From contig JAGYIG010000014.1 in NCBI GenBank assembly GCA_018402455.1, positions 1-64,000 of the forward strand: DNA of 64,000 nucleotides, written 5' to 3'. Made by a program: the position numbers and the translations under genes. Under the pieces are notes generated by a model, which ran no database searches, was not told the DNA's origin, and was given only the letters and a program-made list of their open reading frames with translations. This stretch comes from Opitutaceae bacterium. Its GTDB lineage: Bacteria > Verrucomicrobiota > Verrucomicrobiia > Opitutales > Opitutaceae. Below, piece after piece: positions 2,300-30,554 of this stretch. Every line of letters starts with the position of its first letter. Positions within the stretch are counted from its first letter, which is position 1.

Positions 2300-2314
2300 G
2301 CCTCTTTTTTTTCG

Positions 2315-6083: not shown

Positions 6084-7907
6084 ATGATCTGGCTCCGAAA
6101 GTTCTCGATTCATTCCGGGTTGACGGCAGTGGGGCTCATCCTGCTCGTCGTCGGGGCCAAGCTTTGGGTGGTGGATTTGGCCGGCAGCAGCCTGCCCTAT
6201 CGCGACCAAATCGATGCCGAGGGGGAGTCCATTTTGAGACCTTGGGTGGAGGGCCGACTGGAACCTTCCGCCTTTCTGGCCCCCCACAACGAGCACCGGG
6301 TCGTGCTCACCAAATTGTTGAGCTGGCTGGGGGTGATGGCCAACGGACAGTGGGACGTTTACGTGCAATTGTGTCTAAATGCGTTGCTCCACGCCGGGCT
6401 GCTGCTGGTGGTGCTGCGTTGGCTGCGAGGCTACCTGTCGGGCTGGCGCTACTTCGTCCTGGCCCTGTTGGCGGTGGGACTGTGGGTGATGCCGGTGGAT
6501 TGGGAAAATACCTTGGGAGGGTTCCAATCGCAGGTCTATCTCGTGCTGGGCCTGTCGTTTCTGCAAATCTGGGGAGTGTTGCGCGCCGAGCGGGCCGATG
6601 CATGGTGGTGGGGAGGCAACGTGTGCGGCGCGCTCGCCCTGGGCACAATGGCGTCCGGTATGCTCTCCTCCCTCGCCGTCATCGCGGTGCTTTTTATCCG
6701 CACGTTGCGGCAACGGCGTTCGACTCCGTTGGACATCGCCTCGATCGGATTTTCGGGACTTTGGGTGGTCATCGCGCTTTATAGCCGGGTCTCCGTTCCG
6801 GGACATGCAGTGCTGAAAGCCGACTCCTTGGGTGAGTTTGCCAGGGCTCTCGGCCAAATGGCCACCTGGCCAATGACGGGGCATTTGCCGTGGAGCCTCC
6901 TGCTGGCCCTGCCGGCGGTCGTGATGATCGGTCGCATCATCCGTCAAAACAAGCTCTCCAGCCGACAAACCGTCCTCCTAGGCATGGGCCTGTGGATGCT
7001 GCTCACCCTGGTCGCAACCGCTTGGTGGCGCGGCGGGAGTTCGCCGCTGATCTCCCGTTACCTCACGACCTACTATTTTTTGGTTTTGCTACAGGGCCTG
7101 GCATTGACCTGGGAATCCAGGCGGCCCTGGCAGTACGGCCTGGCCGCGGGCTGGGCCACCCTGATTCTGATCGGGCTCTGGGACGCCTCCGCCACCACCA
7201 TCAAGGACCGGTTGCCGGAGATCTCGGCGCGGGCGCACCGGAGTGAGGCTTTGATGCGAAACTACTTTGCCACCGCCGATGCGGGGATTTTGAGCGCGGC
7301 GGACCAAGCTGACCTTCCCTACCCCTCGGCGGCGGTGTTGGCGGAACGTTGGCGGCACCCGAGCATTCAGTCGCTGATGCCCGCGGCGGTGCGGCAACCG
7401 TTGCACCTGCCCCCCGCAGAGCATTCCGATCTCAGCGAGCTCCCCGCCGCACCCTACCCAGTGATCGCGGCATCACCGCCCGGTGGCCAAAATGAACCCT
7501 GGGTGTGGCGGAGCGAACGCCAACCGCCTTCAGCGCTGCCCGTGCTGCGCTTTCGCTTCAGCGGCGGACTGGGCGATCCCGGATCCGCTCTGCATCTCCG
7601 CATCGTGAGCGACACCGCAACCATCGAACTGACCCCGGACGGGCCCGCCCGCCACCGTTGGAAAACCATCAACATCTTCCGACCATCCGGCGAATGGTGG
7701 ATCGAAATAGAGGACAACGACACCATCGACCGGTTGGCGCTCACCGCTCCGGTGGAATTGGGCCTGATGTCTTGGGCGGCGGAAAAACTGATCAAATTCC
7801 ATTTCTGGTGGCTCAGCGCCGGCGCGCTGCTCGTCGGCCTCGGCGGGTTGGCCGGGATGACCACCCGAACTCCCGCTGCAGGGATAAAGCCGGCATCGCC
7901 GGATTGA
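6084..7907 (+). CDS. Polytopic membrane protein, polysaccharide locus
   Basis: A 607-residue integral membrane protein starting four bases after the large glycosyltransferase, so in the same operon. About nine to eleven hydrophobic segments fill residues 10-375. A soluble, probably periplasmic region (about 380-560) follows, then a last membrane span near 573-592. A loop after the first span reads LAPHNEHR, a motif I associate with GT-C-like membrane proteins of polysaccharide loci. It could be a polyprenyl-phosphate-dependent glycosyltransferase or an assembly protein. It does not resemble a classical Wzx flippase and assignment as Wzy would be a guess. Confidence 0.7.
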
Positions 7908-17039: not shown

Positions 17040-18688
17040 TCTCCCGCCGCCGCATCCGGCATCACCCGGCCTTCGATCACAAATTTCAGCAAACACACCG
17101 CCAAGCGACGTTCGTCGCCAGAACTGGCCACAGTGTTCCGCTCATCCGACTCGACCCGCAACCGATTCTCGCCGGGCGCGAGCACGATCCCCGAGACCCG
17201 CCACTCGCGGACGCGGGCGTCCACCGGCTGCTGCCAAAGCACTGCGCCGTCCTGGGTGAGCCGGGCCGTCCTCGGCGTGTGCGCCGTCCACTCCCCGCGA
17301 ATTTGGATTTCGAGCGGATGAGGATAAGGGTTGGTCAGCACGATATCCGCATCGCTCTCGGACCACCGCCACTGCCGCTTACGGTTTGTTTCGGCCCGAT
17401 ACCACGGGCGGGGAAACTCCACCTTGAGCTCGGCGTTTCTCACGTTCGCAGGCAACGCTTCCGCGTTGGTCAGGCGCACCGAGTAGGTTTCTCCCGGGAG
17501 GGGCTCCAGCGAGAAGGGCGCGACAAACAGGGTCAGGTTGCCGAGCAACAAGATCGGCCACCACCGGCGCCCCAGCGGCACCAACAGATTAAAGGCCAGC
17601 AACAGGGGCAGCAGCACCCGGCTCGAGGCCCCGGGATACCCCTCCCACACCGCCGGCCCCAGACTGAACGCCAGCACCGTGAACGGAACCATCATCCGCC
17701 AGGCCGCCTGCCGCCATTGCCACCAGGCGAGTAAAAACAGCGCCTGCACCGTGATGCTGAGGTGCGTGGCGATGCCCGCCGACAGAAATTTCCACCGGGT
17801 CTCGCCGCTGACCACCCCCTGATACAACTCCAGCCAGCGCTCGCCATAGGCCACGAACGGCACGGCAAAATTCCGCGCGCCGGCCAAGGAACCGCTTTCG
17901 GCAAAGCGCCATTTCAAAAAGAAAAACCAAGCCAGCAACGGGAGGGCCGCCACCAGCCCCTGCAGCACCGCTCGTCCCCACTGGGGCCAGGCCTGCCATC
18001 GCGCCGGAGCCAACCCCGCCGCCCCCAAAACGTTGGTTTCCTTGGCCAAACCACTGAGCGCCAGAACCGCCGTGGCCCGCCACGACTTGCCCTGCTCGAT
18101 CCAGCGCAGGGCCAGCGCCAGCAACAGCAAGCTCGGGCCATCCACCAACGAGGAAAAGGCGCTGAACCAGACCCCCACCGACAACATGATACCCAACCAA
18201 CGCACCGCCCGGTCCAGGGTGGTGGGCGGGAACCAGCGCAGCAAAAGCCACCCCAACAGAAACCAGCAGATCACATTCTGCAGGGCATAAATATTGAGCA
18301 CCCAATTGGGTTGACCCAGACCCAACACATAGGCGGTCCAGGGGAGCAAAATACGACGGGCCCGGTAAGGCAGATTATCCATCGATTCGGTCAGCGTTTC
18401 ATCCCGCAACGCCGGATCGATGGCCAATTGCGCGTAATACTGGGCGTCGTAGCCGGAGGACCGAAAGTGGCGATAGACCGTGACATCCCGCTCCTCGATC
18501 CAGTCGAAGGCCCGCGCGGGTTCATCGCCCTGACCAATCAGATAAGTAAACCCGTATTCAGGGATGTAATACTCGGAAAGCTTGGCCAGGAAGCCTCCCC
18601 CCGCGAGCAAGTAGACCAGCACCAATCCCGGCCGAACCCCGGAAGGTGGGCGGGGCGACGACAGCCATGACCATAACCGTTGCAACAT
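17036..18688 (-). CDS. GT-C-like polytopic membrane protein
   Basis: A 550-residue membrane protein read against the rest of the locus. After a short positive N-terminus comes one membrane span, then a periplasmic loop with GYDAQYYAQLA and RARRILLPW. These fit the DxQxY plus R-I-L-x-P pattern of GT-C-fold proteins involved in cell-surface glycopolymer formation. About nine spans follow to residue 400. The C-terminal 150 residues (about 400-550) are hydrophilic and beta-rich. A polyprenyl-phosphate sugar transferase role is inferred, not shown. Convergent with the GT2-GT4 gene. Confidence 0.72.
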   Translation of the reverse strand: MLQRLWSWLSSPRPPSGVRPGLVLVYLLAGGGFLAKLSEYYIPEYGFTYLIGQGDEPARAFDWIEERDVTVYRHFRSSGYDAQYYAQLAIDPALRDETLTESMDNLPYRARRILLPWTAYVLGLGQPNWVLNIYALQNVICWFLLGWLLLRWFPPTTLDRAVRWLGIMLSVGVWFSAFSSLVDGPSLLLLALALRWIEQGKSWRATAVLALSGLAKETNVLGAAGLAPARWQAWPQWGRAVLQGLVAALPLLAWFFFLKWRFAESGSLAGARNFAVPFVAYGERWLELYQGVVSGETRWKFLSAGIATHLSITVQALFLLAWWQWRQAAWRMMVPFTVLAFSLGPAVWEGYPGASSRVLLPLLLAFNLLVPLGRRWWPILLLGNLTLFVAPFSLEPLPGETYSVRLTNAEALPANVRNAELKVEFPRPWYRAETNRKRQWRWSESDADIVLTNPYPHPLEIQIRGEWTAHTPRTARLTQDGAVLWQQPVDARVREWRVSGIVLAPGENRLRVESDERNTVASSGDERRLAVCLLKFVIEGRVMPDAAAGD

Positions 18689-18807
18689 AGAAAGGCTCTA
18701 CGCAGCACCACCCACGCGAGGGCGTCAACCGCTCTTGGCCGCGACCGCTGCGGCGCACCTCAGGCATTGCAGACCGGGTCCTCTTCCACCTCAATCCCCC
18801 CCTGATC

Positions 18808-19506
18808 ATGCTCAAACTCTCCATCGTCATCCCCTGCTACAATGAACGCGACACCGTCGCATCGTTGGTTGATGCCGTGCAGGCCGCTCCGATTGATATC
18901 GAGCAGGAGATCATCATCGTGAATGACTGCTCGACCGATGGGACCCATGATGTCCTTGACCGCGAGATCGCCCCGCGGGTCGCCAAGGTGCTGCACCATC
19001 AGGTCAATCAAGGCAAGGGAGCGGCCCTGCGCACGGGCATTCGCGAGGCCACCGGCGATTTTGTCATCATTCAGGATGCCGACCGGGAATACGATCCGCA
19101 GGACTACCCCAAGCTGCTCACCCCGCTACTCAGCGGAAAGGCCGACGTTGTTTTTGGCTCCCGCTTCATGGGGGGAGAACCGCACCGGGTGCTTTACTAC
19201 TGGCACTCCCTGGGGAATCAATTCCTCACCCTACTCTCCAACATGTTCACCAACCTGAACCTCACGGACATGGAATGCTGCTATAAGGTTTTCCGACGGG
19301 AAATTATCCAAAGCATCAAAATTGAGGAGGACCGGTTTGGGGTGGAGCCGGAGCTCACCGCCAAGATTTCCCGTAAGAACTGCCGCATCTATGAGGTCGG
19401 GGTAAGCTACGCCGGCCGCACCTATGCCGAGGGCAAGAAGATCGGTTGGCGGGACGGGGTGCGGGCCATTTATGCCATTCTGAAATACAACGTTTGGCAT
19501 CGCTGA
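18808..19506 (+). CDS. GT2 glycosyltransferase, dolichyl-phosphate-sugar-synthase-like
   Basis: A 232-residue GT-A enzyme. It shows [12 protein letters not shown] at the N-terminus, VNDCSTDGT, the DADREYDP acidic site, FGSRFMGG and [12 protein letters not shown], the last being characteristic of the DPM1/DPG-synthase branch. It lacks a C-terminal membrane anchor. The likely reaction is sugar transfer from a nucleotide donor to polyprenyl phosphate. It starts 119 bp from the divergent membrane-protein gene and ends four bases before the next GT4 gene. Confidence 0.87.
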
Positions 19507-19510
19507 GCGC

Positions 19511-20722
19511 ATGCTCCTCTTCGACCTCTCCCATACCAGCCATAGTCAGGCCCGCACAGGCGTCCAGCGGGTGTCACTCGAGCTGCGCCGGGCGCTTAAG
19601 GCCCTGCCCCGGTACCTGACCGAGGTCACTCATGACCCCTACGCCGGCGACTGGCGACCCTTGCAAAAGTGGGAGCTGGACGCGCTGGAGGCGGCGCCCC
19701 GGACGACCAAACGGCGGGGGTCCTATTGGCCCCTCGCGGCCCAGCTTCGAGGTCGGATGGTTCGGTGGCGCCGCGGCGATCCTGCCAGCTTCTTGGCGTC
19801 GACGAAGCCGACGGGCTTCTTCACGCCCGAGATTTTCACCCAACGCACGGCCCATGCCCTCCCGCGTCTTTTTAAGCGGATCACCGGCCCCAAAATTGCG
19901 CTGTTTCACGACGCGATTTCGCTGCGCCTACCCGCTATGGCCCCCGCCAATGCAGTCGCCCGATTCCCCACCTACCTGGCCGAGCTGCATGATTTCGATG
20001 GCGTTGTGGCCCTGTCGGCCGACTCCCGCCAATCCCTGTTGGACTACTGGGAATGGGCAGGCTGGGACAACCCTCCCGAGGTGCGGGTGATCCCCGCGGG
20101 GGTGGACCACCTCACGGAACCGACAGTCCCGGTTGCGTCCCGGGGGCAACCCAACGCGGGAGTCCCCCCCCTGACGGTGCTTTGCGTCGGGTCAATCGAG
20201 GGCAGAAAAAATCACCTCACTCTGCTCGAAGCCTGCGAAATCCTCTGGCGTCAGGGCGAGACGTTCACGCTCCACCTCATCGGAACCCTGCAGCGCCTCA
20301 CGGGAGCCCCCGCCCTGACGCGTATCCAGGAACTGCAGCAAGGCGGCCGCCCCATCACCTACGACGGCTGGGTCAGTGACCCCGACCTTCAGCGCGCCTA
20401 TGCCGATTGTGCATTTACAGTTTATCCCTCTCTGATGGAGGGATTTGGGTTTCCCGTCTGGGAAAGTCTTCTCCACGCCAAACCCTGTGTCTGCTCCCCC
20501 CAAGGCGCCACCGGCGAAACCGCGGCGGGGGGCGGTTGCCTGACCCCCGATGTCCGATCGGCCCGGTCGCTGGCCGAAACAATGCAGCAGCTGTTGAAAA
20601 ACACCGACCTGCGGGAGCGTCTCACCCTCGAGGCCCGGAACCGTTTGGCTCCGCGGTGGTCGGATTGCGCTCAAGGCCTGGTCGATTGGAGTGACGAACT
20701 GAGCCGAGCTAAATCCAATTGA
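19511..20722 (+). CDS. GT4 glycosyltransferase
   Basis: A 403-residue GT4 enzyme, four bases after the DPM1-like gene. The N-terminus (LLFDLSHTSHSQARTGVQRVS) resembles mannosyltransferase-type GT4 proteins. A VGSIEGRKNH segment near residue 230 and the EX7E motif (EGFGFPVWE) near 311-319 mark the donor site. GATGETAAGGG follows. It closes the plus-strand polysaccharide block. The gene at 21990 encodes a protein of similar layout, so the two may be paralogues. Confidence 0.86.
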   Translation: MLLFDLSHTSHSQARTGVQRVSLELRRALKALPRYLTEVTHDPYAGDWRPLQKWELDALEAAPRTTKRRGSYWPLAAQLRGRMVRWRRGDPASFLASTKPTGFFTPEIFTQRTAHALPRLFKRITGPKIALFHDAISLRLPAMAPANAVARFPTYLAELHDFDGVVALSADSRQSLLDYWEWAGWDNPPEVRVIPAGVDHLTEPTVPVASRGQPNAGVPPLTVLCVGSIEGRKNHLTLLEACEILWRQGETFTLHLIGTLQRLTGAPALTRIQELQQGGRPITYDGWVSDPDLQRAYADCAFTVYPSLMEGFGFPVWESLLHAKPCVCSPQGATGETAAGGGCLTPDVRSARSLAETMQQLLKNTDLRERLTLEARNRLAPRWSDCAQGLVDWSDELSRAKSN

Positions 20723-20778: not shown

Positions 20779-21975
20779 ATGGCACTTACTTTTTTCAAGC
20801 GTAGCCCCAAAGCGATCCTGCAGCGTTCTCGAGATGACTACGCGACCAAGATGCGCCTCAAGTATGCGCCCTACTATCACGCGATGGAGTCCCAGCAGGG
20901 AACTTCCATCAGATTGGATGGACGGGACATGGTCATGCTTTCGAGCAATGACTATCTGGGACTGTCGTTCCATCCTCAAGTCATCGAAGCCGGCCAAAAA
21001 GCCATGCTCAAATGGGGTACCAGCCCGACCGGCGCGCGCCCTTCCAATGGGTCGCGACTTTATCACACCGACCTGGAGCAAAAGTTGGCGACGTTTCTGG
21101 GCCGCGAAGCCTGTCATATCCACGCCGCCGGTTACCTCTCCTGCCTCACCAGTGTCGCCGCCTTTGCCCAGAAAGGGGACATCATCCTGGCCGATAAGAA
21201 CATCCATTCCTGTCTTTGGGACGGCGTGCGGTTGTCGATGGCCACCGTCGAACGCTTCTCCCACAACAACCCGACCGATTTGCGGGACATCATGGAAACG
21301 GTGGACGCTCGGCGCGCCAAGATGTTGGTGATCGAGGGCGTCTATTCCATGGAGGGGCACATCGCGCAGATGCCCGAACTGATCGGCATCGGGGAGGAAT
21401 TTGGCTGTTTCAGCGTGGTGGACGACGCGCATGGATTCGGCGTATTGGGTCGGCAGGGTCGGGGCACCGTCGATCACTTTGGTTTGAACGACCAGGTCGA
21501 CATCATCTGCGGCAGCATGTCCAAATCACTGGCCAGCACGGGCGGCTTCATCGCCGCATCCCATGACATCATCGAATACCTGCGGACCAACTCCAAACAG
21601 ACGATCTTCAGTGCGGCCGTGCCGCCCTCGCAAGCGGCGGTGGCCTCGGCGGCATTGGACATCATGCAAAATGAGCCCGAACACCACGAACGGCTCTGGC
21701 GCAACACCAAGCGCTACACCAATATTCTGCGATCGTTGGGGCTCGATATTTGGGGCAGTGAAACTCCGGCGGTCCCCATCGTGCTGGGCTCCCGCGAAGC
21801 GGTTTATCGTTTTTGGCAAGCCCTGTTGGAGAAGGGGATCTTCACCGTCATGTCGATCGCGCCGGCCGTGCCCCCGGGCAAAGACCTGATCCGCACCGCC
21901 GTCTCGGCGCTGCACACTGACGACCAAATTGACCGGATCGGCGAGGCCATGGCCTACGCCCTCAAAAAGCTTTAG
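20779..21975 (+). CDS. Serine-palmitoyltransferase-like alpha-oxoamine synthase
   Basis: A 398-residue PLP enzyme of the family that joins an amino acid to an acyl thioester (SPT, BioF, KBL, ALAS). Visible motifs are SSNDYLGL, the DDAHGFG PLP site (H218) and the Schiff-base lysine K249 in SMSKSLASTGGF. The SKSLAS-GGF form fits bacterial serine palmitoyltransferases better than BioF or KBL, where the motif is usually GTLGKA. SPT makes 3-ketosphinganine. Cysteate-using relatives (sulfonolipid) remain possible. ATG 20779 is chosen; an in-frame TTG at 20719 would overlap the preceding stop. It converges on the glycolipid-like operon, 14 bp stop to stop. Confidence 0.85.
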   Translation: MALTFFKRSPKAILQRSRDDYATKMRLKYAPYYHAMESQQGTSIRLDGRDMVMLSSNDYLGLSFHPQVIEAGQKAMLKWGTSPTGARPSNGSRLYHTDLEQKLATFLGREACHIHAAGYLSCLTSVAAFAQKGDIILADKNIHSCLWDGVRLSMATVERFSHNNPTDLRDIMETVDARRAKMLVIEGVYSMEGHIAQMPELIGIGEEFGCFSVVDDAHGFGVLGRQGRGTVDHFGLNDQVDIICGSMSKSLASTGGFIAASHDIIEYLRTNSKQTIFSAAVPPSQAAVASAALDIMQNEPEHHERLWRNTKRYTNILRSLGLDIWGSETPAVPIVLGSREAVYRFWQALLEKGIFTVMSIAPAVPPGKDLIRTAVSALHTDDQIDRIGEAMAYALKKL

Positions 21976-21989
21976 GTCGGGGCAGCAGG

Positions 21990-23012
21990 TCAGGCGCTTT
22001 CTAGGGTCGCCCTCACGACGGCCGCGGACTCCCGCCAAGTGGGCAGGGTTCGCGTGGCGGCCGACGCGGCCAGTTGCCGCCAGACGGCATCCTCCTGCAG
22101 GATTTGACGCAGCCCCTCTCGCCACGCCACCGGATCGTTGACCGGCAGGATCAAGCACCCCCCGTCGGCGGTGTTTTCCCGCAGGACCGGCAAATCGGAA
22201 CACACACAGGGCAAGCCCCGCCACAGCGACTCGAGCACCGGGAGGCCACACCCTTCGGCAATGGTGGGGAAAACCACGGCCCGCGTGTTCTCCAGCAACC
22301 GCGAAAACCGTTCATCTGAGGCAGCCTCATGAAATTTCAATTGGGGGCGCCGACGGGAGAGCTGTTGAATCTGCGTTGCGATGGGCCGCCCATAGTGGGG
22401 GTTGATGCGGCCGACGATGTGGAGCTCAAACGGGAGCCCCTCCGCCCAAAGCGACTCGGCGACCTCCAGCAGAAACGACTGGTTTTTGCGCGGCTCCACG
22501 ATCCCGACGCAGAGCAGCGCGGGACCGGGCACTGCGTCGCGCCGAGGCCAACGGTCGGAGCCATCGAAATCGGCCCCCAACGTCAGGACGGACACGCGGG
22601 TTGAGGTCGCATTCCCCTGCCAGCGCCAAAACCCCAACAGGTCCTTTTTGACCGCTGCCGAAATCGCAAACACGTGTTCGAACTGCGAGAGGGCCTGCAG
22701 GTATTGCGGGTGGCGCGCCACCGCGTGAGGCCAGGTGATCCGCGGATGCTGCAGGGGAATCGCATCCGCGAACAAGGCGGCCAATCGGCAGGGGGGCTGG
22801 TGCAGGAACTCGGCAAACCCGGGTCGTTTCTCCACGTCAAAAACTTCCGTCGTAAAATACCAGTCCTCGGGCCCCGCCTCGCGTGGATCCCACTGCCCCC
22901 AAACCACCGGCTTGATGGCCCCCCGCAATTCCTCCGCGAAGCGACGATTCACGCGCATCAAACCCGAAGCATGACGGGCTTTGCCGGATTTGGTGACGTC
23001 GAAGTAAATCAT
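21990..23012 (-). CDS. GT4 glycosyltransferase (lipid-linked cluster)
   Basis: A 340-residue GT4 enzyme and the last gene of the minus-strand cluster. The N-terminus (MIYFDVTKSGKARHASGLMRV) has the same layout as the GT4 protein at 19511. VGIVEPRKNQ and EX7E (EGCGLPVLE) mark the donor site. Its start overlaps the stop of the preceding GT4 gene by four bases. In this context it may extend a glycolipid head group, but it could equally belong to the neighbouring polysaccharide locus. Confidence 0.84.
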   Translation of the reverse strand: MIYFDVTKSGKARHASGLMRVNRRFAEELRGAIKPVVWGQWDPREAGPEDWYFTTEVFDVEKRPGFAEFLHQPPCRLAALFADAIPLQHPRITWPHAVARHPQYLQALSQFEHVFAISAAVKKDLLGFWRWQGNATSTRVSVLTLGADFDGSDRWPRRDAVPGPALLCVGIVEPRKNQSFLLEVAESLWAEGLPFELHIVGRINPHYGRPIATQIQQLSRRRPQLKFHEAASDERFSRLLENTRAVVFPTIAEGCGLPVLESLWRGLPCVCSDLPVLRENTADGGCLILPVNDPVAWREGLRQILQEDAVWRQLAASAATRTLPTWRESAAVVRATLESA

Positions 23013-24256
23013 GGTATCAAGGCCTTTTCAAAAAGGGCCGCCAACCGCTGCGCGTTTCGGGTGCCGTCGTAGTTGTCCTCCGCCCAGGCCCGGGCGGAGA
23101 GCCGCACCCGATCCCACGCCGGGTCGGGATGGCGCAAACCAGCCAACCGCTCGGCCCACCGCACGGGTTGATCCACCGGCAAGACCCAACCGGTCTGCCC
23201 GTCGGTTACCGCCTCGGTGGTGGCGGCATGAGGAGACGTGAGCACCAACACTCCGGCGATCATCGCCTCGGGAATTACGTTGGGTAAGCCATCCCGGTCG
23301 CCGGTCGCTGCCACCACACCCGTGTGCAGCAACGCATCGGCGCGGCCCAGATCCTCCCAGACCGCCTGCTGGGAGAGGTGACCCGGTAGTTTGACGTGGC
23401 GCGCGAGCTTGAGCGCGGAAATCTGCTCCTCCAATCGACCCCGTTCGGGCCCCTCCCCCACGATGCGGGCCTCAAACTCAACCCCTTGATCCGCCAGAGC
23501 GCGGTAGATGCGCAGCTGATGATCAAGTCCCTTTTTGGCGACCAAACGGGCGATGCAGAGCAGCCGGAGGTGCGTCCGCTCGGGACGCAATGGCCGACAG
23601 GGAGGAAAGTTCTCCAGCCCGCGACGGATGACATGAATTTTCGCTGGATCGAGTCCGCGTTCCACCAAGGTGGCTCGACCCATGGCGGTGGAGGTGTGGA
23701 TGAAGCGGGCCTCGGTCAGCTTTTCCCGCAACCACCAGTCGCCGCCGTGTTCATAGATGTCGTAAGCATGAGCCGCCGTGCTGTAGCGATGACCGTTCAG
23801 GCGATGCAGAATCCACGCCGCCGTGGCGGGCGCGCCCGACCAGGCCGCGTGCACCAGATCCGGGGGATGCCGCCTGAAATGCGGGTAGAACACCCCGGCA
23901 AACCCGGCCCCCAAGGCGTCGAGCTGGTGAGCCAGGAGGGAGCGCGGCGGGTGCAGCTGCTCTGCAGAAACGCTCTTGAGCAGGGAGAGCGCCACCCAGG
24001 GAATGATCCAAAGCAACTCCAGCAGTCGCCACAGGGAGAACTTGATGACGGGCTGGCCCGCAAAGGTTCCGCCGCCGCCAAAAAGCGAATACAGCCGCAG
24101 GTCCAATCCCCGGCCGATCATCGCCCTCACCTCCCGCTGCAGAAACGTTTCGGTGGGCTGCGGAAAGGTGGTGAAAAGATAGGCAACGCGGATCGGAGCA
24201 GGACGCACGGCCGCCAATCTGGGATTCAAGCCATCCGGGGCCAAGCGCTTACTCAT
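23009..24256 (-). CDS. GT4 glycosyltransferase, colanic-acid WcaL-like
   Basis: A 415-residue GT4 enzyme. It begins, after a 20-residue leader, with VAYLFTTFPQPTETFLQREV, typical of the WcaL/exopolysaccharide branch. A hydrophobic stretch near residues 72-95 may associate with the membrane. VAKKGLDHQL and GLPNVIPEAM mark the donor domain. It follows the MGDG-synthase-like gene by 29 bp and overlaps the next GT4 gene. A role in extending a lipid-linked sugar is inferred from position only. Confidence 0.85.
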   Translation of the reverse strand: MSKRLAPDGLNPRLAAVRPAPIRVAYLFTTFPQPTETFLQREVRAMIGRGLDLRLYSLFGGGGTFAGQPVIKFSLWRLLELLWIIPWVALSLLKSVSAEQLHPPRSLLAHQLDALGAGFAGVFYPHFRRHPPDLVHAAWSGAPATAAWILHRLNGHRYSTAAHAYDIYEHGGDWWLREKLTEARFIHTSTAMGRATLVERGLDPAKIHVIRRGLENFPPCRPLRPERTHLRLLCIARLVAKKGLDHQLRIYRALADQGVEFEARIVGEGPERGRLEEQISALKLARHVKLPGHLSQQAVWEDLGRADALLHTGVVAATGDRDGLPNVIPEAMIAGVLVLTSPHAATTEAVTDGQTGWVLPVDQPVRWAERLAGLRHPDPAWDRVRLSARAWAEDNYDGTRNAQRLAALFEKALIP

Positions 24257-24285
24257 CCGTCGCCGTTATCAATAAAACCACGGGA

Positions 24286-25500
24286 TCAATCCGCCAGGTT
24301 GACCGGCGGAAAGGGTTGGCGGGTCAGAGGGACGTCCGCCACCTCCTGGGCCAAGCGGATCAGGTCCTCGACCAACTCCGTCTGATCATCGGGATATTGC
24401 AGGGCCACAAAATCCTCCCGGTAACGCTCATACGCAGCGGCATCCGCCATCCATGCATCGATCAGGGTGGAGAAATCCTGCGCGCTTTCCACCTTCTGCG
24501 ATCGGGCGCCATTGCGGAAAAATTTCCACGTCAGCTGCTCCTGCGGCATGATGCCTCCGAAGCCATTGAAGATAATGGGACACCCGTAGTGGAGCGCCTT
24601 GGCGCAGGTGGTTGTGCCGCCGCGAGTAACGATGACATCACTGGCCTGCACCAGCAGGTGCATCTCGTCCGTGTAGCCATCGACAAACAGCGGCAACTTC
24701 GGGTGATTGGCCCGCCAATGCATCAAGGCGTTGTAGGTCTCGATGTTGCGCCCACAGATCGCGATGACCTGCAGCCGCTCCGCGTGCCGGGCCAGCGTGG
24801 GCAACAGGGCAAGATGGTTGTTCGCCCCGTTGCCGCCGGTGGCGAGAAAGACGGTAAAACGATCCGGCTTCAAACGGAGGTCGCTGCGCCGGTAGCGGGA
24901 TCGCATTTTTTCGTCCAAGTACTCCAGCATCGCCTGCGGTCGCATCAGGTGTCCGCGCACCCGGGTTTTCTTGGCCGGCATGCCGCACTTGATGGCGTAA
25001 TCCCGGGCGGTAGGCGTGCGCGAGATGAACATATCCGCCGAGGGTTCGAGCCAATTTCGGCTGTAGCCCCACCCTCCCGAGAACTCTCCGCAATAGGTGG
25101 CGCACCTGACGGCATCTGCTCCCAGCATCTCGCGGGCGAACTGAAAATAGCCTCGGTTGAGACAGTCGTGCACGCTCAAGACCAGATGGGGGCGGTAATC
25201 CTCCAGGACGGTCCGGTAGTAGCCCCGACCGATGGTGACACTGGAGCGATTGATGAAACTGAGCAGCTCCACCATCGCGTAGAACAGGTTGTGCAAAAAG
25301 GGCAGGCGCAGCTGAATCCAGTTATAGAGGCGCACCCCCGAGCGATTCACCACCGACGACTTTTCCAGCATCTGCTCGATCCGCACGTCTACGCTGTGTT
25401 GGTAAAGCACAAAACACCATTGGGCAAAGGCCTGCGCCCGCGCGTCATGTCCCCCGCCGGTGCTGGAGGTTAAGACCAGGATTCGAAGTTTTTTATCCAC
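24286..25500 (-). CDS. MGDG-synthase/UgtP-like glycolipid glycosyltransferase (GT28)
   Basis: A 404-residue GT-B enzyme of the monogalactosyldiacylglycerol-synthase type. It carries the N-terminal glycine-rich TGGGHDARA motif for acceptor and membrane interaction. The C-terminal half has ATGGNGANNH, an acceptor/donor loop GYTDEMHLLVQASDVIVTRG and the GGTTTCAKAL segment typical of GT28. Relatives glycosylate diacylglycerol; beside an SPT-like gene, a ceramide-like acceptor is plausible. The start overlaps the SDR stop by eight bases, so it is translated in the same operon. Confidence 0.83.
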   Translation of the reverse strand: MDKKLRILVLTSSTGGGHDARAQAFAQWCFVLYQHSVDVRIEQMLEKSSVVNRSGVRLYNWIQLRLPFLHNLFYAMVELLSFINRSSVTIGRGYYRTVLEDYRPHLVLSVHDCLNRGYFQFAREMLGADAVRCATYCGEFSGGWGYSRNWLEPSADMFISRTPTARDYAIKCGMPAKKTRVRGHLMRPQAMLEYLDEKMRSRYRRSDLRLKPDRFTVFLATGGNGANNHLALLPTLARHAERLQVIAICGRNIETYNALMHWRANHPKLPLFVDGYTDEMHLLVQASDVIVTRGGTTTCAKALHYGCPIIFNGFGGIMPQEQLTWKFFRNGARSQKVESAQDFSTLIDAWMADAAAYERYREDFVALQYPDDQTELVEDLIRLAQEVADVPLTRQPFPPVNLAD

Positions 25501-26347
25501 GTGTGGTGAGGCCGAAGTAACGCCAGCGGATGATCCGGGCCAGCCTTTCTGGTATCAATCGAACCAATACGGGAGCAATACGAGCCTGAAAAACCCCGCC
25601 GCTGCGCACCACCCCGGAACGTCGGCGCTGGATCGCCCGCCACATCGCGAGCGCCGCGCTGGCCGCGGAGGGAGCCGCGTCAAGATGGGCTTCGAGGGTG
25701 TGCCAGGCAGCGGACACCCGAGGATCCGGGGTGCGCGCCATGGCGACCGCGGCTCGCGCGGCCATGACCTGATTGAAGCCGGTCTTGATATCGCCCGGCC
25801 GAAAATCAATGACCACGATGCCCGTCCCCGCGCACTCCATCATCAGGCTTTCGCTCAGGGCACTCAGGGCGGCCTTGGCCATGTTGTAACCCGCCATAAA
25901 CGGCAGGGGGAACTCCACCGCCAAGGAGGACACGTTCAACAAGATGCCCGTTTCCAGGCCGCGCAGGGCGGCCATCTGCACCCCGATCAAGGCACTCGTG
26001 GTGGTGACCATGGCTGCAAGTTGCTGATCCAATTCCGCCGCCGACAAGGTGGTGAACGGGGCGAAGACGCCGTATCCCGCATTGTTGATGATGACGTCGA
26101 AACCGCCCGCCTCATGCCAACAGTCTGTAAATTTTTTCAGCGTTCCCTCCCGGTCGGTCAGGTCCAGCACCACCCCATGAAACCCGGGTTGGAGCTGGCA
26201 GGCGGCCCAACCGGTCTCGGCCCGCGCTGTCCCCCAGACCGCCCAACCCCGGGTGAGCAGCAACTGAGCGATGGCTCCGCCAATTCCCCCCGAGACTCCC
26301 GTGACGAAGGCCCGCCTCGACGGCGGGTGCTGGGCTGCCGCGGTCAT
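25493..26347 (-). CDS. Short-chain dehydrogenase/reductase (lipid cluster)
   Basis: A 284-residue classical SDR. It has the NAD(P) motif VTGVSGGIG near residues 15-23, an NNAGYG strand, catalytic S140/S141 and YxxxK (Y154-N-M-A-K158). In an SPT/KAS/ACP context it could reduce 3-ketosphinganine or a 3-ketoacyl-ACP. The start overlaps the upstream KAS stop (ATGA), indicating coupling. The C-terminal 80 residues are arginine-rich with a hydrophobic segment near 255-280 that may bind the membrane. Confidence 0.82.
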   Translation of the reverse strand: MTAAAQHPPSRRAFVTGVSGGIGGAIAQLLLTRGWAVWGTARAETGWAACQLQPGFHGVVLDLTDREGTLKKFTDCWHEAGGFDVIINNAGYGVFAPFTTLSAAELDQQLAAMVTTTSALIGVQMAALRGLETGILLNVSSLAVEFPLPFMAGYNMAKAALSALSESLMMECAGTGIVVIDFRPGDIKTGFNQVMAARAAVAMARTPDPRVSAAWHTLEAHLDAAPSAASAALAMWRAIQRRRSGVVRSGGVFQARIAPVLVRLIPERLARIIRWRYFGLTTRG

Positions 26348-27615
26348 CCCACCGAGGGAACCGCCCTCATCACCAGCGCCACATTGGCGCCCCCGAATCC
26401 ACTGCTGTTATTGAGCACGATTTGGGGCCGCTCGGTCACCGTTTCCCGAATGATGTTCAGATCCGCGACGGCGGGATCCAGATCCGTGAGGTGAGCGGAG
26501 CCCGGCATGAAGCCCTGCCGCAATGCCACGGCGCAGAACCCGGTCTCCATCGCCCCCGCCAGGGACAAGCCATGACCGGTCAGGGCCTTGGTGGAGCTGA
26601 TCGCCGGCCGAGCGCCGGAAGCGCCGAAAACAGATCGGATCGCCTTGCCTTCCGATATGTCACCGATCGGCGTGGAGGTGGCGTGGGCGTTGATGTAGTC
26701 AACCGCCTCCGGCTCCACCCCGGCACTGCCCAGCGCCCGTCGCAGGGCGTTGGCGAGCCCCAGTCCGTCGGGATGAGAAATCGCCACGTTGTGGCCATCG
26801 GAAGCTTGGCCCCACCCCGCGAGTTCGCAGTAGGGGACCACCCCGCGTCGGGCGACCTCCTCCTCACTTTCGAGCACCAGGACGGTGGCCCCCCCTGTGC
26901 CCACGAATCCGTCGCGCCCCCGGTCAAACGGCCGGGATGCGGTATCGGGATCCGGGTTGAGGGAAAGCGCCCGCATGCCCGCGAAAGGCAGGATCGTTTC
27001 AACGTTTCCGTCTTCGGCCCCCACCACAAACATGCGTTGCTGACGGCCCAGAAAAATCTCATCGAAGGCATACCCCAGCGCGTGCGAAGAGGACGCACAC
27101 GCGGAGGCAAATCCAGTGGAGGCCCCTTTGATCCCGAAGTGCGCCACCAGGTTGAACTGCACGGTGCCCGCAATCGAGGCCACAATCCCCAAGGGGGAAC
27201 ACCGCATCACCCCTTTTTCGTGCATGCGGCGCACGTAGTAGGTCAAGAGATTCGGGGAACCGGCGGACGCACCAAACAATCCAGTGTCGTCATTGGAAAT
27301 CTCGGCCGGAGAGAGTCCCGCGTCCTCAATCGCCTGCAGCATCGCACAGTAGCTGTACAGGCCGTGCGGGCCCATGCTGCGCAGGTATTCCCGTTTGACC
27401 CGATAGCGCTCCGGATACGTCCAATCCTCCGGGTCCAACGATTCCGTGTCGAATCCCCGCACCGGGGCCGCCACGGTGACCGGGATATTGGCCGCGGCAA
27501 AAGGTGGGTAGGCGATGACGCCGTGGCGCAGCGCTTTCAAACTTTCGGCGACCGTTGAAAGGTCGTTGCCGATGCTGGTGATGAATCCAAGTCCGGTTAC
27601 GTATACTTTGGCCAT
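26344..27615 (-). CDS. Beta-ketoacyl-ACP synthase (FabF-like)
   Basis: A 423-residue ketosynthase that condenses acyl-ACP with malonyl-ACP. The full catalytic triad is present: C173 in SACASSS, H311 in NAHATSTPIGD and H348 in TKALTGHGLSLAGA, with K343. Length and motifs fit the KAS II family. The start is placed at ATG 27615 (MAKVYVTGLG); the 14 extra in-frame residues upstream are not typical. It follows the ACP-FabZ fusion by about 170 bp and is coupled to the SDR downstream. It may be dedicated to a special acyl chain rather than general fatty acid synthesis. Confidence 0.9.
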   Translation of the reverse strand: MAKVYVTGLGFITSIGNDLSTVAESLKALRHGVIAYPPFAAANIPVTVAAPVRGFDTESLDPEDWTYPERYRVKREYLRSMGPHGLYSYCAMLQAIEDAGLSPAEISNDDTGLFGASAGSPNLLTYYVRRMHEKGVMRCSPLGIVASIAGTVQFNLVAHFGIKGASTGFASACASSSHALGYAFDEIFLGRQQRMFVVGAEDGNVETILPFAGMRALSLNPDPDTASRPFDRGRDGFVGTGGATVLVLESEEEVARRGVVPYCELAGWGQASDGHNVAISHPDGLGLANALRRALGSAGVEPEAVDYINAHATSTPIGDISEGKAIRSVFGASGARPAISSTKALTGHGLSLAGAMETGFCAVALRQGFMPGSAHLTDLDPAVADLNIIRETVTERPQIVLNNSSGFGGANVALVMRAVPSVG

Positions 27616-27784
27616 TGCAAGTAGAAGTCCGCCGAGCCCCAAGGATACCGGCGGCACCAGTGTTCTGGGGGATACGGTTTTGAGTCGGTGAACAAGAGGA
27701 TGTCCCCCCCCACCAGTCGCGTCAACGCACCGATTGGCCCCAAGCTAAAAATCCCGCGAGGGAACTGGGGCGTCGTCGAAAAAA

Positions 27785-28741
27785 TCAGGCGCTCGCCGCC
27801 TTGGGCTGCGGAGCCGCGGATCGATTAGCGGTGATAGAATCCACTTGATCGTCGATGATCTTGGCGTCCACGTAAGCGAACGTGAGGGTAATTTCCTCGG
27901 CCATCGCCGCCTTGTCTTGGCCCACCCGAATCGAGCCTTCGAAGGTGGCCAACGGCATCTTCGTGCGTTTGGGTTTGATCGAAAGCGAAAGCAGATCACC
28001 GGGTCGGCAGATGCGGTGGCAGCGCACCCCTTCGCACGAGGTGAAGAAAATCTTGGTGTGATCCACGATTTTGCCTTCGTCGGGCGAGGACCCCTCCAAT
28101 AAGTAAAGCACTGCTAATTGCCCGAGGGCTTCGAGCATCAAGGAAGCTGGCATCACCGGGTTGTCCTTGAAGTGGCCTCGGAGAAAAAACTCCTGTCCGG
28201 TGATTTTATACTTACCCTGTGCCCCTCCCCCACTGAGCGTCGCCTCGTTGAGGAACAGAAAAGGGGCTTGGATGGGCATGACCGAAACAATCTGCTCGAT
28301 CGGGAGAAATTTGGTCGGGCGAGGCGGCGGCAAACCGCGCACCTTGCAATCAATGAAGACCTTGATGTCGCCCACCGTGCGTAGGTTGCGCAAGTCCTCA
28401 TTATTGATCTGCATCTGCAACACATCCTCGACCAGGATGACAATTTCCATCATGGTGAGAGAATCGATTCCCAGATCCTCCACTAGGCGGAGCTCGTCAT
28501 CGGCCTCCTTAAGTTTGGCCCGCAGATCCGGCTCCACAAAGCGTTCGATCACGCCGATGATTACAGCAGGCAAATGACTTGCCTCGTTGGTCTTACGGTA
28601 GGCAATGGCCGCCTCGATCGTGGCGGGGGAGCAACGTTTTAGTGACTCTCGCAGGGTGGACTCGTCTTCGACTGTCATCGGTTTTAATCCCGCATCGGTA
28701 GGTCTGCGGTCGTTTTGAGCCTTTTGGTCGGCTTGTGGCAT
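27785..28741 (-). CDS. Acyl carrier protein - FabZ-like dehydratase fusion
   Basis: A 318-residue two-domain protein. The N-terminal part holds an acyl carrier protein, with the phosphopantetheine serine S94 in LGIDSLTMMEI, preceded by an unassigned helical segment (about 25-75). Residues about 145-300 form a hot-dog fold of the FabZ/FabA-like type, with catalytic H190 (GHF) and E204 (LMLEALGQ) kept. It is probably the carrier and dehydratase of a dedicated acyl pathway. AGGAG lies just upstream of the ATG at 28741, which supports this start over the in-frame ATG at 28678. First gene of the minus-strand operon. Confidence 0.85.
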   Translation of the reverse strand: MPQADQKAQNDRRPTDAGLKPMTVEDESTLRESLKRCSPATIEAAIAYRKTNEASHLPAVIIGVIERFVEPDLRAKLKEADDELRLVEDLGIDSLTMMEIVILVEDVLQMQINNEDLRNLRTVGDIKVFIDCKVRGLPPPRPTKFLPIEQIVSVMPIQAPFLFLNEATLSGGGAQGKYKITGQEFFLRGHFKDNPVMPASLMLEALGQLAVLYLLEGSSPDEGKIVDHTKIFFTSCEGVRCHRICRPGDLLSLSIKPKRTKMPLATFEGSIRVGQDKAAMAEEITLTFAYVDAKIIDDQVDSITANRSAAPQPKAASA

Positions 28742-28967
28742 GGTCTCCTACTAAGATTCGGCCCTGAGGAAAGTAAACGCTATTCTAGCGACCGATCAGG
28801 TGTGCCATACCGACTCTTTTCGGGTGGATTTATTCACATCCGAAGCATTAACCGAGGACGTTGCGACGAGGAATCTTGTCACCCGTTTGTTACCTTAGGA
28901 GCGGAATTGCTTCGCTCCCCGACTCGGGATTGATCCATGGTTTGCCCCCCCTTTGTTGGCTGTCCCT

Positions 28968-30116
28968 GTGAAGAATCCTCCCCGCTCATCCCCGTCGGTC
29001 TACCTCATCAGCCACGAGTTTTTCCCCAAACGTGGCGGCATCGCGACATTTGCGGAGGAAATGGCGGGCGCGGCGCAGGAAATCGGCTGGGAGGTCGAGG
29101 TCTGGGCCCAAAACAGGGGGGATGCGGCCGAGCCCGCATGGCCGTTTCGGATCTGGCGGCTCCCGCTTAAGGGCACCCATGATTTTTCCTGTCAGCTGAG
29201 GCTGGCTTTTCACTTGATCTCGCGACGCCGGGAATTGCGTCGGGCCACCGTTTACCTGCCCGAGCCCGGCCCGATGCTGACGTTGATGTTGTTGCAGCGC
29301 TTTCATGCCTTTCGCCCCCGCAACCTGATTCTGACCTTTCATGGCTCGGAAATCCTCAAGTTTTACCATAATCCCTTCATTCGCCCGCTCGCCCGCCGAC
29401 TGATCGCCAATGCGACCAAGATCAGCACCCTCACGACCTACACCCGGGATCTGCTGCTGGGGCACTTTCCCGAGGCGGAATCCAAGCTGATCAAAACGCC
29501 CGGCGCCCTCCGATCCAACTACGTGGTGGTTGACCACCCAGTGCCCGCAGAACGCGATCGAGTAGTGGTGTTGACCGTAGGCCGAATCCACCCCCGAAAG
29601 GGTCAGCGGGTCACCTTGCAGGCGCTCCAAAACCTGCCTGATGCCCTTCGCGCCAAGATCGAATATTGGATTGTTGGCGCTTCCTCCCGGCCGAACTACG
29701 AGGCGGAATTGAGAGCGGTGGCCGCGGCCACGGATTTCCCGGTGAAGTTTTTGGGGGACCTGTCCGACGACGCGTTGAGCCGGATTTATGATCAGGCCGA
29801 TATTTTTGCGATGACCAGTGTGGACCACGGTCACAGCGTGGAGGGATTCGGGCTCGTTTACCTTGAGGCCTCCGCCCACGGATTGCCCATCGTAGGGCAC
29901 GCGGTCGGAGGCGTGCCCGAAGCGGTCATCGAAGCGCAAACGGGCTTCCTCGTACCTCCTCACGATCAGGCGGGATTGGCCGCGGCCTTGACCAAGCTGA
30001 TCAACTCGGAATCCCTGCGCCGGACCTTGGGCGATACGGGGCGGCACTGGGCCCGGCGACACACGTGGCGGGATTCGGCCCGGACGCTTTTCGGCGAGCC
30101 GGATCCCTCGAATTGA
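28968..30116 (+). CDS. GT4 glycosyltransferase
   Basis: A 382-residue GT4 enzyme divergent from the lipid operon. It begins YLISHEFFPKRGGIATFAEEM, a typical GT4 acceptor-side segment, with VGRIHPRKGQR near residue 202 and EGFGLVYLE near 295. It resembles PimB/PimC-like and other membrane-lipid mannosyltransferases, which would fit the neighbouring lipid genes. The start is uncertain: GTG 28968 is used here, with TTG 28953 as alternative; neither has a strong Shine-Dalgarno. Confidence 0.84.
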   Translation: MKNPPRSSPSVYLISHEFFPKRGGIATFAEEMAGAAQEIGWEVEVWAQNRGDAAEPAWPFRIWRLPLKGTHDFSCQLRLAFHLISRRRELRRATVYLPEPGPMLTLMLLQRFHAFRPRNLILTFHGSEILKFYHNPFIRPLARRLIANATKISTLTTYTRDLLLGHFPEAESKLIKTPGALRSNYVVVDHPVPAERDRVVVLTVGRIHPRKGQRVTLQALQNLPDALRAKIEYWIVGASSRPNYEAELRAVAAATDFPVKFLGDLSDDALSRIYDQADIFAMTSVDHGHSVEGFGLVYLEASAHGLPIVGHAVGGVPEAVIEAQTGFLVPPHDQAGLAAALTKLINSESLRRTLGDTGRHWARRHTWRDSARTLFGEPDPSN

Positions 30117-30149: not shown

Positions 30150-30554
30150 GTGTTAACTTCTCGATCCCGCATTCGCGTTCGCTACTCGGAGACCGACATG
30201 ATGGGCGTGGTCTACCATGGCAGTTACCTTCCCTGGTTGGAGGTCGCCCGGACCGATCTGTTCCGCCGATTTGGGCTGTCCTATCGGCAACTTGAATTGG
30301 AGGGGTTTCGGTTGCCGGTGCTGGCCGTCTCTTGCCAATACCTCCGGCCGGCTGTCTATGATGATGAGATTGATATCGAAGTTTCCTGCCGGGAAAAACC
30401 CCGGCTCCGCATTCGATTGAGCTACGAGTTGTGGCGCGGCGAGGAATTGCTGGCCAGGGCGGGGACCGAGCATGCCTTTGTCGATCAGGAGGGTCGGCCG
30501 ATACGTCCCCCGGTCGCGTTTACGCAACTGATCGAGCGAAGCTTCGCCGACTAA
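30150..30554 (+). CDS. YbgC/4HBT-type acyl thioesterase
   Basis: A 134-residue hot-dog thioesterase. The N-terminus RVRYSETDMMGVVYHGSYLPW contains the YbgC-type catalytic aspartate in ETD and the VYHGSYLPW helix start. The length is normal for the family, which hydrolyses acyl-CoA or acyl-ACP. It starts with GTG, 33 bp after the GT4 gene, and ends overlapping the queG stop by four bases. Next to KAS and ACP genes it may release or edit acyl chains, but YbgC genes also occur alone. Confidence 0.85.
   Translation: MLTSRSRIRVRYSETDMMGVVYHGSYLPWLEVARTDLFRRFGLSYRQLELEGFRLPVLAVSCQYLRPAVYDDEIDIEVSCREKPRLRIRLSYELWRGEELLARAGTEHAFVDQEGRPIRPPVAFTQLIERSFAD

What the first reader, a model, noticed from the sequence alone, without database searches (positions are those of the whole stretch)
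20779..28741. Candidate sphingolipid/glycolipid biosynthesis locus with its own ACP, dehydratase, ketosynthase and glycosyltransferases
An SPT-like oxoamine synthase (K249 in SKSLASTGGF) lies next to a minus-strand run of ACP-FabZ, KAS, SDR, MGDG-synthase-like GT28 and two GT4 genes. Several of these are coupled by overlapping stops and starts. This could be a complete route from malonyl-ACP to a glycosylated long-chain amino lipid. The sequence shows the families; the ceramide or sulfonolipid product is inference. No obvious ceramide synthase is in the window.
Basis: partly seen in the sequence, partly recalled or inferred. Interest (0 to 1): 0.78.

Follow-up and report, generated by a model that had tools for sequence, protein, structure and literature searches.

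The report
Sphingoid-type glycolipid gene cluster in Opitutaceae
A family of environmental bacteria carries a conserved set of genes that looks able to build its own fatty chain, join it to an amino acid as in sphingolipids and add sugars, mostly without the usual bacterial ceramide-making enzyme, so it may make a sphingolipid-like glycolipid of still unknown structure.

Summary
In detail: an SPT-like alpha-oxoamine synthase (AOS, 20779-21975 +) lies beside a minus-strand run GT4-GT4-GT28-SDR-KAS-(ACP-FabZ), with the expected catalytic residues. The window lies in Opitutaceae (Verrucomicrobiota). The AOS groups with serine palmitoyltransferases, not with BioF/KBL/ALAS (p-AU 0.007), has the SPT-type alanine where the cysteate enzyme SulA has lysine, and its five best fold matches are SPTs. 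It is in 57 of 61 family genomes; all 57 also have the ACP-FabZ. The known bacterial ceramide synthase (bCerS) was not found in the own genome; 50 of 58 family genomes with this AOS lack a strong match. Of nine strong matches in the family, six sit near a different SPT-type gene; three stand alone, so some genomes may still make ceramides with this AOS. Sulfonolipid is disfavoured. Best reading: a dedicated, dissociated KS/ACP/DH feeds the SPT-like enzyme, a KDSR-like SDR reduces the product, glycosyltransferases finish a sphingoid-base glycolipid, in most genomes without N-acylation of the known type. This parallels the PKS-derived Sga sphinganine pathway (2025), with FAS-II-type parts. No lipid has been seen; the product is inference. 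A new variant of a known kind.

The parts
20779..21975 (+). SPT-like alpha-oxoamine synthase (AOS), ATG start 20779 (TTG 20719 possible); K249, H143, N57, D215, H218, R372 and SPT-type A279
21990..23012 (-). GT4c, family 4 glycosyltransferase
23009..24256 (-). GT4b, family 4 glycosyltransferase
24286..25500 (-). GT28, distantly YpfP/MGDG-synthase-like glycosyltransferase
25493..26347 (-). SDR, classical short-chain reductase with S141-Y154-K158; weakly like 3-ketodihydrosphingosine reductase (KDSR)
26344..27657 (-). KAS, FabB/FabF-like ketosynthase with C187-H325-H362
27785..28741 (-). ACP-FabZ fusion: carrier serine S94 (DSL), dehydratase H190/E204
28953..30116 (+). GT4d, divergently oriented neighbour of the ACP-FabZ gene; probable member
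30150..30554 (+). TE, 4HBT/FadM-like thioesterase; neighbour of GT4d, membership uncertain
19511..20722 (+). GT4x, glycosyltransferase upstream of AOS on the same strand; possible member

Best explanation
A family-wide Opitutaceae locus for a sphingoid-type glycolipid. Proposed steps: (1) KAS adds malonyl units to an acyl chain held on the ACP of the ACP-FabZ protein; reduction by the SDR or a housekeeping FabG, and dehydration by the fused FabZ, shape the chain on its own carrier. (2) The SPT-like AOS condenses the acyl-ACP with an amino acid, most likely serine, giving a 3-keto long-chain base. (3) The KDSR-like SDR reduces the ketone. (4) GT28 and the GT4 enzymes add sugars. In most genomes no known-type ceramide synthase takes part, so the lipid there is either a glycosylated sphingoid base without N-acyl chain or is N-acylated by an unrelated enzyme. 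Shown here: the genes, the expected catalytic residues, the SPT lineage of the AOS, co-occurrence and partial synteny, absence of a bCerS match. Inferred: substrates, order of steps, product.
For: SPT lineage: clade of SPT-type rows plus this family 100/96, own clade 100/100, sister to a Rubrobacter enzyme (98/97) whose gene is followed by a bCerS-type GNAT and an epimerase-type reductase; the AU test rejects placing it with BioF/KBL/ALAS, p 0.0066. Diagnostic residues mostly SPT-like (SulA/SPT rule from passages of PMC9304779). First five Foldseek PDB matches are SPTs. Co-occurrence: 57 of 57 AOS-positive family genomes have an ACP-FabZ match; in 144 phylum genomes 18 have both, 2 only an AOS match, 2 only ACP-FabZ. 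GT28 at E<1e-70 in 10 of 11 ACP-FabZ-positive and 0 of 17 negative genomes tested. Extra to housekeeping: the own genome has two other FabA/FabZ-type and seven other ketosynthase matches. Fusion precedent in the same family: KS-ACP-DH-AOS in one protein (Pfam in G037 and G041; near full-length tblastn match in G044 and G189). Functional precedent: PfSgaABC (PMC12134224).
Against: No lipid data. NCBIfam SPT cut-offs are not met (383.5 of 640 bits); the SDR reaches 95.5 of 400 bits for KDSR. AOS has no GT4c neighbour in 14 of 40 AOS loci. ACP-FabZ with GT28 occurs without this AOS in G010 and G168, and ACP-FabZ/KAS without GT28 in G177. Inside the family both genes are near-universal, so 57 of 57 says little; the informative cases are few (G044 and G047 lack both, G010 has only ACP-FabZ). 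Two residues differ from the SPT rows: Ala before R87 in 22 of 23 rows, and Ser for Thr three residues before the PLP lysine in 23 of 23. In G026, G031 and G043 a bCerS-type gene, 40-42% identical to the one beside the sister Rubrobacter SPT, stands without an SPT in the stretch read and could serve this AOS. The KS-ACP-DH-AOS fusions belong to another AOS clade and have bCerS next to them.
Confidence: 0.48

Rival explanations
1. A ceramide-type glycolipid after all: the AOS makes 3-ketosphinganine, and a bCerS-type enzyme (in the genomes that have one) or an unrecognised N-acyltransferase elsewhere acylates it.
For: G026, G031 and G043 have a bCerS-type gene without another SPT in the stretch read, closest to the one paired with the sister Rubrobacter SPT. 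Black Sea Spt-like lineages often lack nearby bCerS/CerR and the authors allow replacement by non-homologous proteins (PMC11334938, section 20). GTs and SDR fit a glycosylceramide.
Against: No bCerS match at E<=1e-10 in the own genome (12 first-look candidates scored below it); 50 of 58 AOS-positive family genomes lack a strong match. Among the recurring neighbours of the AOS that I identified there is no acyltransferase (not every recurring cluster was identified).
Confidence: 0.25
2. The AOS uses another amino acid (glycine, alanine or other), giving a 1-deoxy-type or aminoketone product, possibly a signal or a different lipid anchor.
For: Ala before R87 and Ser before the PLP lysine differ from SPT rows; NCBIfam scores lie between SPT, BioF and KBL models.
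Against: Tree and the other active-site positions are SPT-like; class-level relatives of the same clade keep Ser before R87.
Confidence: 0.12
3. Two neighbouring but separate pathways: KAS/ACP-FabZ make a special acyl chain for another glycolipid, LPS or protein, and the AOS acts on its own.
For: ACP-FabZ and KAS lie apart from the AOS in several genomes and occur without it in G168 and G177, ACP-FabZ also in G010.
Against: Shared presence and absence across order and class, repeated proximity of the two blocks including the class-level relative G133, where all lie within 17 kb, and KS-ACP-DH-AOS fusions elsewhere in the family.
Confidence: 0.12
4. Sulfonolipid (capnine-type) synthesis from cysteate.
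For: SulA shares the fold (rank 20) and also uses acyl-ACP (PMC9304779).
Against: A279 instead of the SulA lysine in 23 of 23 rows; sequence match to the two solved cysteate enzymes weaker than to SPT (210 and 207 against 316 bits).
Confidence: 0.02
5. Ordinary biotin or threonine enzyme (BioF or KBL).
For: Same superfamily; BioF model scores 331 bits.
Against: AU test p 0.0066; residue A279; no biotin or threonine gene among the ten neighbouring proteins scanned.
Confidence: 0.01

Closest known systems
PfSgaAB(C) sphinganine pathway of Pseudomonas fluorescens MYb115 (PMC12134224; passages, outline, sections 8 and 9 seen)
   Same: Dedicated chain-making ketosynthase machinery plus an SPT-type AOS plus a KDSR-like SDR; products named are sphinganines and phosphoglycerol sphingolipids, which I read from the masses as not N-acylated.
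   Different: SgaA is one iterative type I PKS; here KAS, ACP-FabZ and SDR are separate FAS-II-type proteins. The AOS clades differ, with a Caballeronia AOS near a type I PKS as stand-in for SgaB, whose own sequence I did not have. Glycosyltransferases lie in the locus here. Found family-wide.
Caulobacter/Rhodobacteria ceramide system (SPT, AcpR, AasR, bCerS, CerR; PMC9386255 passages seen; reference genes from a Pseudomonas sp. BYT-5 plasmid, named by context and recall)
   Same: SPT-type AOS and a specialised ACP.
   Different: No bCerS or CerR at the locus, no acyl-ACP synthetase among the locus proteins scanned; the ACP is fused to a dehydratase and comes with a ketosynthase.
Bacteroidota SPT (Sphingobacterium multivorum, PDB 3a2b/8guh)
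   Same: Best sequence and fold match; most active-site residues.
   Different: 39-40% identity in the Foldseek alignment; NCBIfam cut-off not met; Ala and Ser at two positions where it has Ser and Thr. Its gene neighbourhood was not looked at.
SulA cysteate acyl-ACP transferase (PMC9304779, passages seen)
   Same: Fold, acyl-ACP logic.
   Different: Key lysine replaced by alanine.

Membership tests
Serine palmitoyltransferase | Places with SPTs, apart from BioF/KBL/ALAS | tested here: met
   Tree and AU test: SPT-type rows plus this family 100/96; the branch that also takes in the SgaB-like rows is 90/79, not starred. Several SPT rows are SPT by gene context, not by assay.
Serine palmitoyltransferase | Active-site N, H, K, R and Ala opposite SulA Lys281 | tested here: met
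   N57, H143, K249, R372, A279 in 23 of 23 rows; rule from PMC9304779 passages; position found by spacing from the PLP lysine, SulA itself was not aligned
Serine palmitoyltransferase | Other active-site neighbours as in SPT references | tested here: not met
   Ala before R87 (22 of 23) and Ser three residues before K249 (23 of 23), where the SPT rows have Ser and Thr
Serine palmitoyltransferase | Reaches a curated NCBIfam SPT equivalog cut-off | tested here: not met
   383.5 of 640, 343.6 of 500, 266.2 of 670 bits
Serine palmitoyltransferase | Condenses serine with a long acyl thioester | not testable with these tools
   needs enzyme assay
Bacterial ceramide pathway (Caulobacter type) | bCerS present | tested here: not met
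   no match in the own genome with one query at E<=0.001 or a six-row profile at E<=1e-10; the genome is 91% complete
Bacterial ceramide pathway (Caulobacter type) | CerR present | tested here: inconclusive
   best own-genome match E 6.5e-12, 33% over residues 5-192 of 303, on another contig; such similarity runs through the superfamily
Sulfonolipid pathway (SulA) | Lys at SulA position 281 | tested here: not met
   alanine
Sga PKS sphinganine cluster | Type I PKS SgaA next to the AOS | tested here: not met
   KAS is a 437-aa discrete enzyme
Sga PKS sphinganine cluster | KDSR-type SDR | tested here: inconclusive
   95.5 of 400 bits in the window (not the best model); KDSR is the top model at 160 bits in the class-level relative L163
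GT28 diacylglycerol glucosyltransferase (YpfP type) | Reaches family cut-off | tested here: not met
   PRK13609 68.2 of 500 bits; Pfam Glyco_tran_28_C 36.9 over its cut-off of 22

The most novel reading that the evidence does not exclude
The KAS-SDR-FabZ-ACP module has ketosynthase, reductase and dehydratase but no enoyl reductase among the locus proteins. It could hand the AOS a trans-2-enoyl chain on its own ACP, so that condensation with serine gives a 3-keto-4-ene base at once: a sphingosine-type double bond built by fatty-acid-synthase logic instead of a desaturase, then glycosylated without a ceramide stage. Nothing in my evidence excludes this; a housekeeping enoyl reductase could also act on the chain.
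Probability: 0.16. Interest if true: 0.8.

Novelty: new variant of a known kind. Interest (0 to 1): 0.58.

Why it matters
Bacterial sphingolipid producers are commonly predicted from SPT, bCerS and CerR. A whole family with an SPT-lineage enzyme tied to its own acyl-chain module and sugars, mostly without a strong bCerS match, would be missed or mis-called by that rule. If the product is confirmed, it adds a second, dissociated form of dedicated chain synthesis for sphingoid bases next to the PKS form described in 2025, and gives Opitutaceae a membrane lipid class for which I found no report in nine library searches (open-licence PubMed Central papers only, most of them not aimed at this family).

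Tried and rejected
BioF/KBL/ALAS identity: rejected by the AU test and residue A279. Sulfonolipid: disfavoured by the same residue. The idea that a 558-aa neighbour in some genomes replaces KAS/ACP-FabZ as an acyl-ACP synthetase: it is RecN. Clustering of neighbours in 59 sequences (window plus 58 loci) gave, among the recurring clusters that I identified, glycosyltransferases, a polyprenyl synthetase, a DUF4013 protein and others; not all recurring clusters were identified. An ACP paralogue of G034 lies beside a methyltransferase and near a TonB-type receptor, with no further lipid gene recognised among six neighbours scanned; the G020 copy was not followed. AcpR relationship of the ACP domain: BLAST scores too low to judge. 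Defence-system models: none for the AOS and GT28, the only two tested. Rfam at gathering threshold: none in the window. Literature for Opitutaceae with sphingolipid, glycolipid or aminolipid: nothing on the topic in the listings.

The direction is not shown: in the class-level relative G133 all parts lie within 17 kb. The draft also said that bCerS in the family sits beside other SPTs; three of nine strong matches do not. For these two reasons I lowered the best explanation from 0.52 to 0.48, the novel case from 0.17 to 0.16 and the interest from 0.60 to 0.58, and raised the ceramide rival from 0.22 to 0.25 and the two-pathway rival from 0.10 to 0.12.

Rows dropped: the ORF finder failed for the AOS of L047, L052 and L054 and for GT4b of L032. 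A3 is the window plus 22 of 40 AOS loci; A1 the window plus 17, A2 plus 18, A4 plus 13, A5 plus 13. A mis-framed Pseudoalteromonas row stood, was corrected and left out; a row with two stops (G174) was cut to the part after the last stop from then on. GT4 labels can be interchanged, since these genes are paralogues. In one search some genomes had more first-look candidates than were scored (G006, G013, G043, G046).
Full report
Where it is. The window is part of contig C7 of a 3.67-Mb draft genome, 91% complete. Its nearest named relatives by the ACP-FabZ protein are an Opitutaceae MAG, PL25a_bin.28 (88%), and Candidatus Synoicihabitans palmerolidicus (90% over residues 39-294), so I place it in Opitutaceae, Verrucomicrobiota.

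What is there. Pfam gives Aminotran_1_2 for the AOS, GT4 domains, Glyco_tran_28_C, adh_short, both ketosynthase domains, and PP-binding plus FabA-like domains in one 318-aa protein. Invariant in the alignments: ACP S94 and dehydratase H190/E204 (18 rows), KAS C187, H325, H362 (19 rows), AOS N57, H143, D215, H218, K249, R372 (23 rows), SDR S141, Y154, K158 (14 rows). That these are the catalytic residues of ACP, FabZ, KAS and SDR enzymes is recalled; for the AOS the N/H/K/R set is named in PMC9304779 (passages).

Which AOS. NCBIfam ranks the Bacteroidota-type SPT model first (383.5 bits), but no curated cut-off is met; BioF scores 331. Among PDB sequences Sphingobacterium SPT is best (316 bits), against 254 for 8s1y and 210 and 207 for the two cysteate enzymes. 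In a 35-row tree the family is a 100/100 clade, sister to a Rubrobacter enzyme (98/97), inside a 100/96 clade with SPT-type rows from Sphingobacterium, a sphingomonad, Roseomonas, a Pseudomonas plasmid and others; holding it with BioF/KBL/ALAS is rejected (p-AU 0.0066), and so is keeping the other SPT and SgaB-like rows together without it (p-AU 0.0079). The groups were named after a first tree had been seen, so these p values flatter. Only some SPT rows are characterised; the plasmid rows are SPT by context. The Rubrobacter gene is followed by a GNAT protein that aligns with the bCerS reference (31%) and an epimerase-type reductase. At the position of SulA Lys281 (found by spacing from the PLP lysine; SulA was not aligned) the family has Ala, like all SPT rows; BioF, ALAS and KBL rows have Thr or Asn. 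N90 matches most SPT rows, though Aureispira and Rubrobacter have Thr and one KBL also has Asn. Two differences: Ala before R87 in 22 of 23 rows, and Ser instead of Thr three residues before K249 in 23 of 23. An AlphaFold model (mean pLDDT 86.5) has SPTs as its first five PDB matches.

How the genes travel. The AOS is found at E<=1e-80 in 57 of 61 genomes of the family, own genome included. All 57 have an ACP-FabZ match, in separate pieces in G005 and G053; of the other four, G010 has ACP-FabZ, G044 and G047 do not, and G011 (67% complete) was not tested. Since both genes are nearly universal there, this count by itself is weak. Across 144 phylum genomes (the listed handles of the two searches coincide, so I take the draws as the same), 18 have both, 2 (G109, G174) only an AOS match, 2 (G168, G177) only ACP-FabZ, leaving 122 with neither at the thresholds used, 1e-100 and 1e-20; G168 and G177 do have weaker AOS-family matches (2.3e-77, 1.6e-55). 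G109 and G174 group outside the window's clade and have bCerS matches, in G174 next to the AOS. GT28 at E<1e-70 (a cut I chose after seeing the list) is in 10 of 11 ACP-FabZ-positive genomes tested, missing in G177, and in 0 of 17 negatives, two of which have weak matches. In 40 AOS loci, 26 have GT4c next to the AOS and 14 the unbroken chain to ACP-FabZ; in 80 named ACP-FabZ loci KAS is adjacent in 78, GT4d in 77, SDR next to KAS in 53; of 41 with near-full flanks 40 hold KAS, 40 GT28, 29 SDR and 23 the AOS. In G008, G012, G019 and G048 KAS-ACP-FabZ sits on another stretch with GT4d, TE, QueG and AroK, while the AOS of G008, G012 and G048 has GT4c, GT4b, GT28 and SDR beside it. In the class-level relative G133 all parts lie within 17 kb. 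So the same parts keep company in several arrangements; which is ancestral I cannot say.

Relation to the known ceramide system. A Pseudomonas plasmid gave a reference set (acyltransferase, fatty acyl-AMP ligase, epimerase-type reductase, ACP, SPT-type gene); naming them bCerS, AasR, CerR, AcpR and SPT is my reading from context and recall. With the acyltransferase as single query, 4 of 20 genomes matched and the own genome did not. With a six-row profile, 9 of 62 family genomes have a strong match (E<1e-60: G009, G026, G031, G037, G041, G043, G044, G060, G189) and three more a weak partial one (G028, G035, G042). Of the 58 tested family genomes with this AOS (57 plus G189), 50 lack a strong match. 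In six of the nine it lies near another SPT-type gene: G060 (57% to Sphingobacterium SPT, with a CerR-like gene), G009 (about 6 kb from an SPT with AcpR- and AasR-like genes), and G037, G041, G044, G189 (next to a KS-ACP-DH-AOS fusion). In G026, G031 and G043 it is 40-42% identical to the Rubrobacter GNAT and no SPT, KAS or other queried gene lies in the 6.4, 13 and 20 kb read. Because the Rubrobacter SPT is the sister of the window's AOS, these three may keep an old partner of it. That is evidence against a wholly bCerS-free pathway in every member.

A useful comparison. In G037 and G041 one protein of 1366 or 1349 aa holds ketosynthase, ACP, dehydratase and AOS domains by Pfam, followed by bCerS; G044 and G189 have near full-length tblastn matches to it (60 and 64%). 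The same four functions are separate proteins in the window. The fused AOS of G037 and G041 groups with a Caballeronia AOS near a type I PKS, not with the window's clade. This supports, without proving, that KS, ACP and DH can serve an AOS.

Mechanism. The own genome has two further FabA/FabZ-type matches and seven further ketosynthase matches, so the window's set looks extra to housekeeping fatty-acid synthesis. PfSgaABC of P. fluorescens makes C24-C28 sphinganines with an iterative PKS and an SPT, and a KDSR-like SDR is proposed for the reduction (PMC12134224, passages and sections 8-9). I propose that the window encodes the same logic with dissociated parts and with glycosyltransferases. 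The SDR could act on the 3-ketoacyl-ACP or on the 3-keto base; it lies with GT28 away from KAS in some genomes (G008, G012, G048) and with KAS away from GT28 in G068, so I cannot decide. Lack of an enoyl reductase among the locus proteins suggests, but does not show, an unsaturated or hydroxylated chain.

Novelty and limits. The Black Sea study lists 22 Verrucomicrobiota MAGs with Spt-like proteins and notes lineages without nearby bCerS/CerR (PMC11334938, section 20), so Spt-like genes in this phylum are not new; its supplementary tree was not available to me. I did not find the ACP-FabZ/KAS/GT28 association described in the listings of the nine searches named under why it matters, none of which used those terms together. 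No product is known, many genomes are drafts, and co-occurrence counts share ancestry.

Noticed in passing
L209:4636-8736 + (G037), L210:10441-14490 - (G041), L245 6353-10306 - (G044), L244 5641-9558 + (G189): Opitutaceae proteins with KS-ACP-DH-AOS domain order (Pfam in the first two, tblastn match in the others), next to a bCerS-like acyltransferase; no AT or KR domain found by Pfam.
   Followed up: partly
L211 (G060), L212 (G009): Two Opitutaceae genomes hold an additional canonical-looking SPT set (Bacteroidota-like SPT with bCerS and CerR-like gene; proteobacterial-like SPT with AcpR-, AasR- and bCerS-like genes), which may be horizontal gains.
   Followed up: partly
L246 4098-5204 - (G026), L247 2640-3734 + (G031), L248 9782-10912 + (G043): Stand-alone bCerS-type GNAT genes, 40-42% identical to the one beside the Rubrobacter SPT, without an SPT in the stretch read.
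   Followed up: partly
window 845-6079 and 14457-20722: Glycosyltransferase-rich stretches (GT4, multi-domain GT2/GT4 proteins of 1254 and 860 aa, GT2 of 232 aa), so the locus sits in a region that may serve a surface glycan.
   Followed up: partly
window 17036-18688 - and 6084-7907 +: Large proteins (550 and 607 aa) without a Pfam match; relatives of the first occur in 13 of the 59 sequences clustered, window included.
   Followed up: no
L173 9558-9923 + (G034), L174 9866-10252 + (G020): Paralogue of the ACP part of ACP-FabZ, 54-55% identical, away from the locus.
   Followed up: partly
window 42877-43800 +: Protein with a histone-deacetylase domain among housekeeping genes.
   Followed up: no
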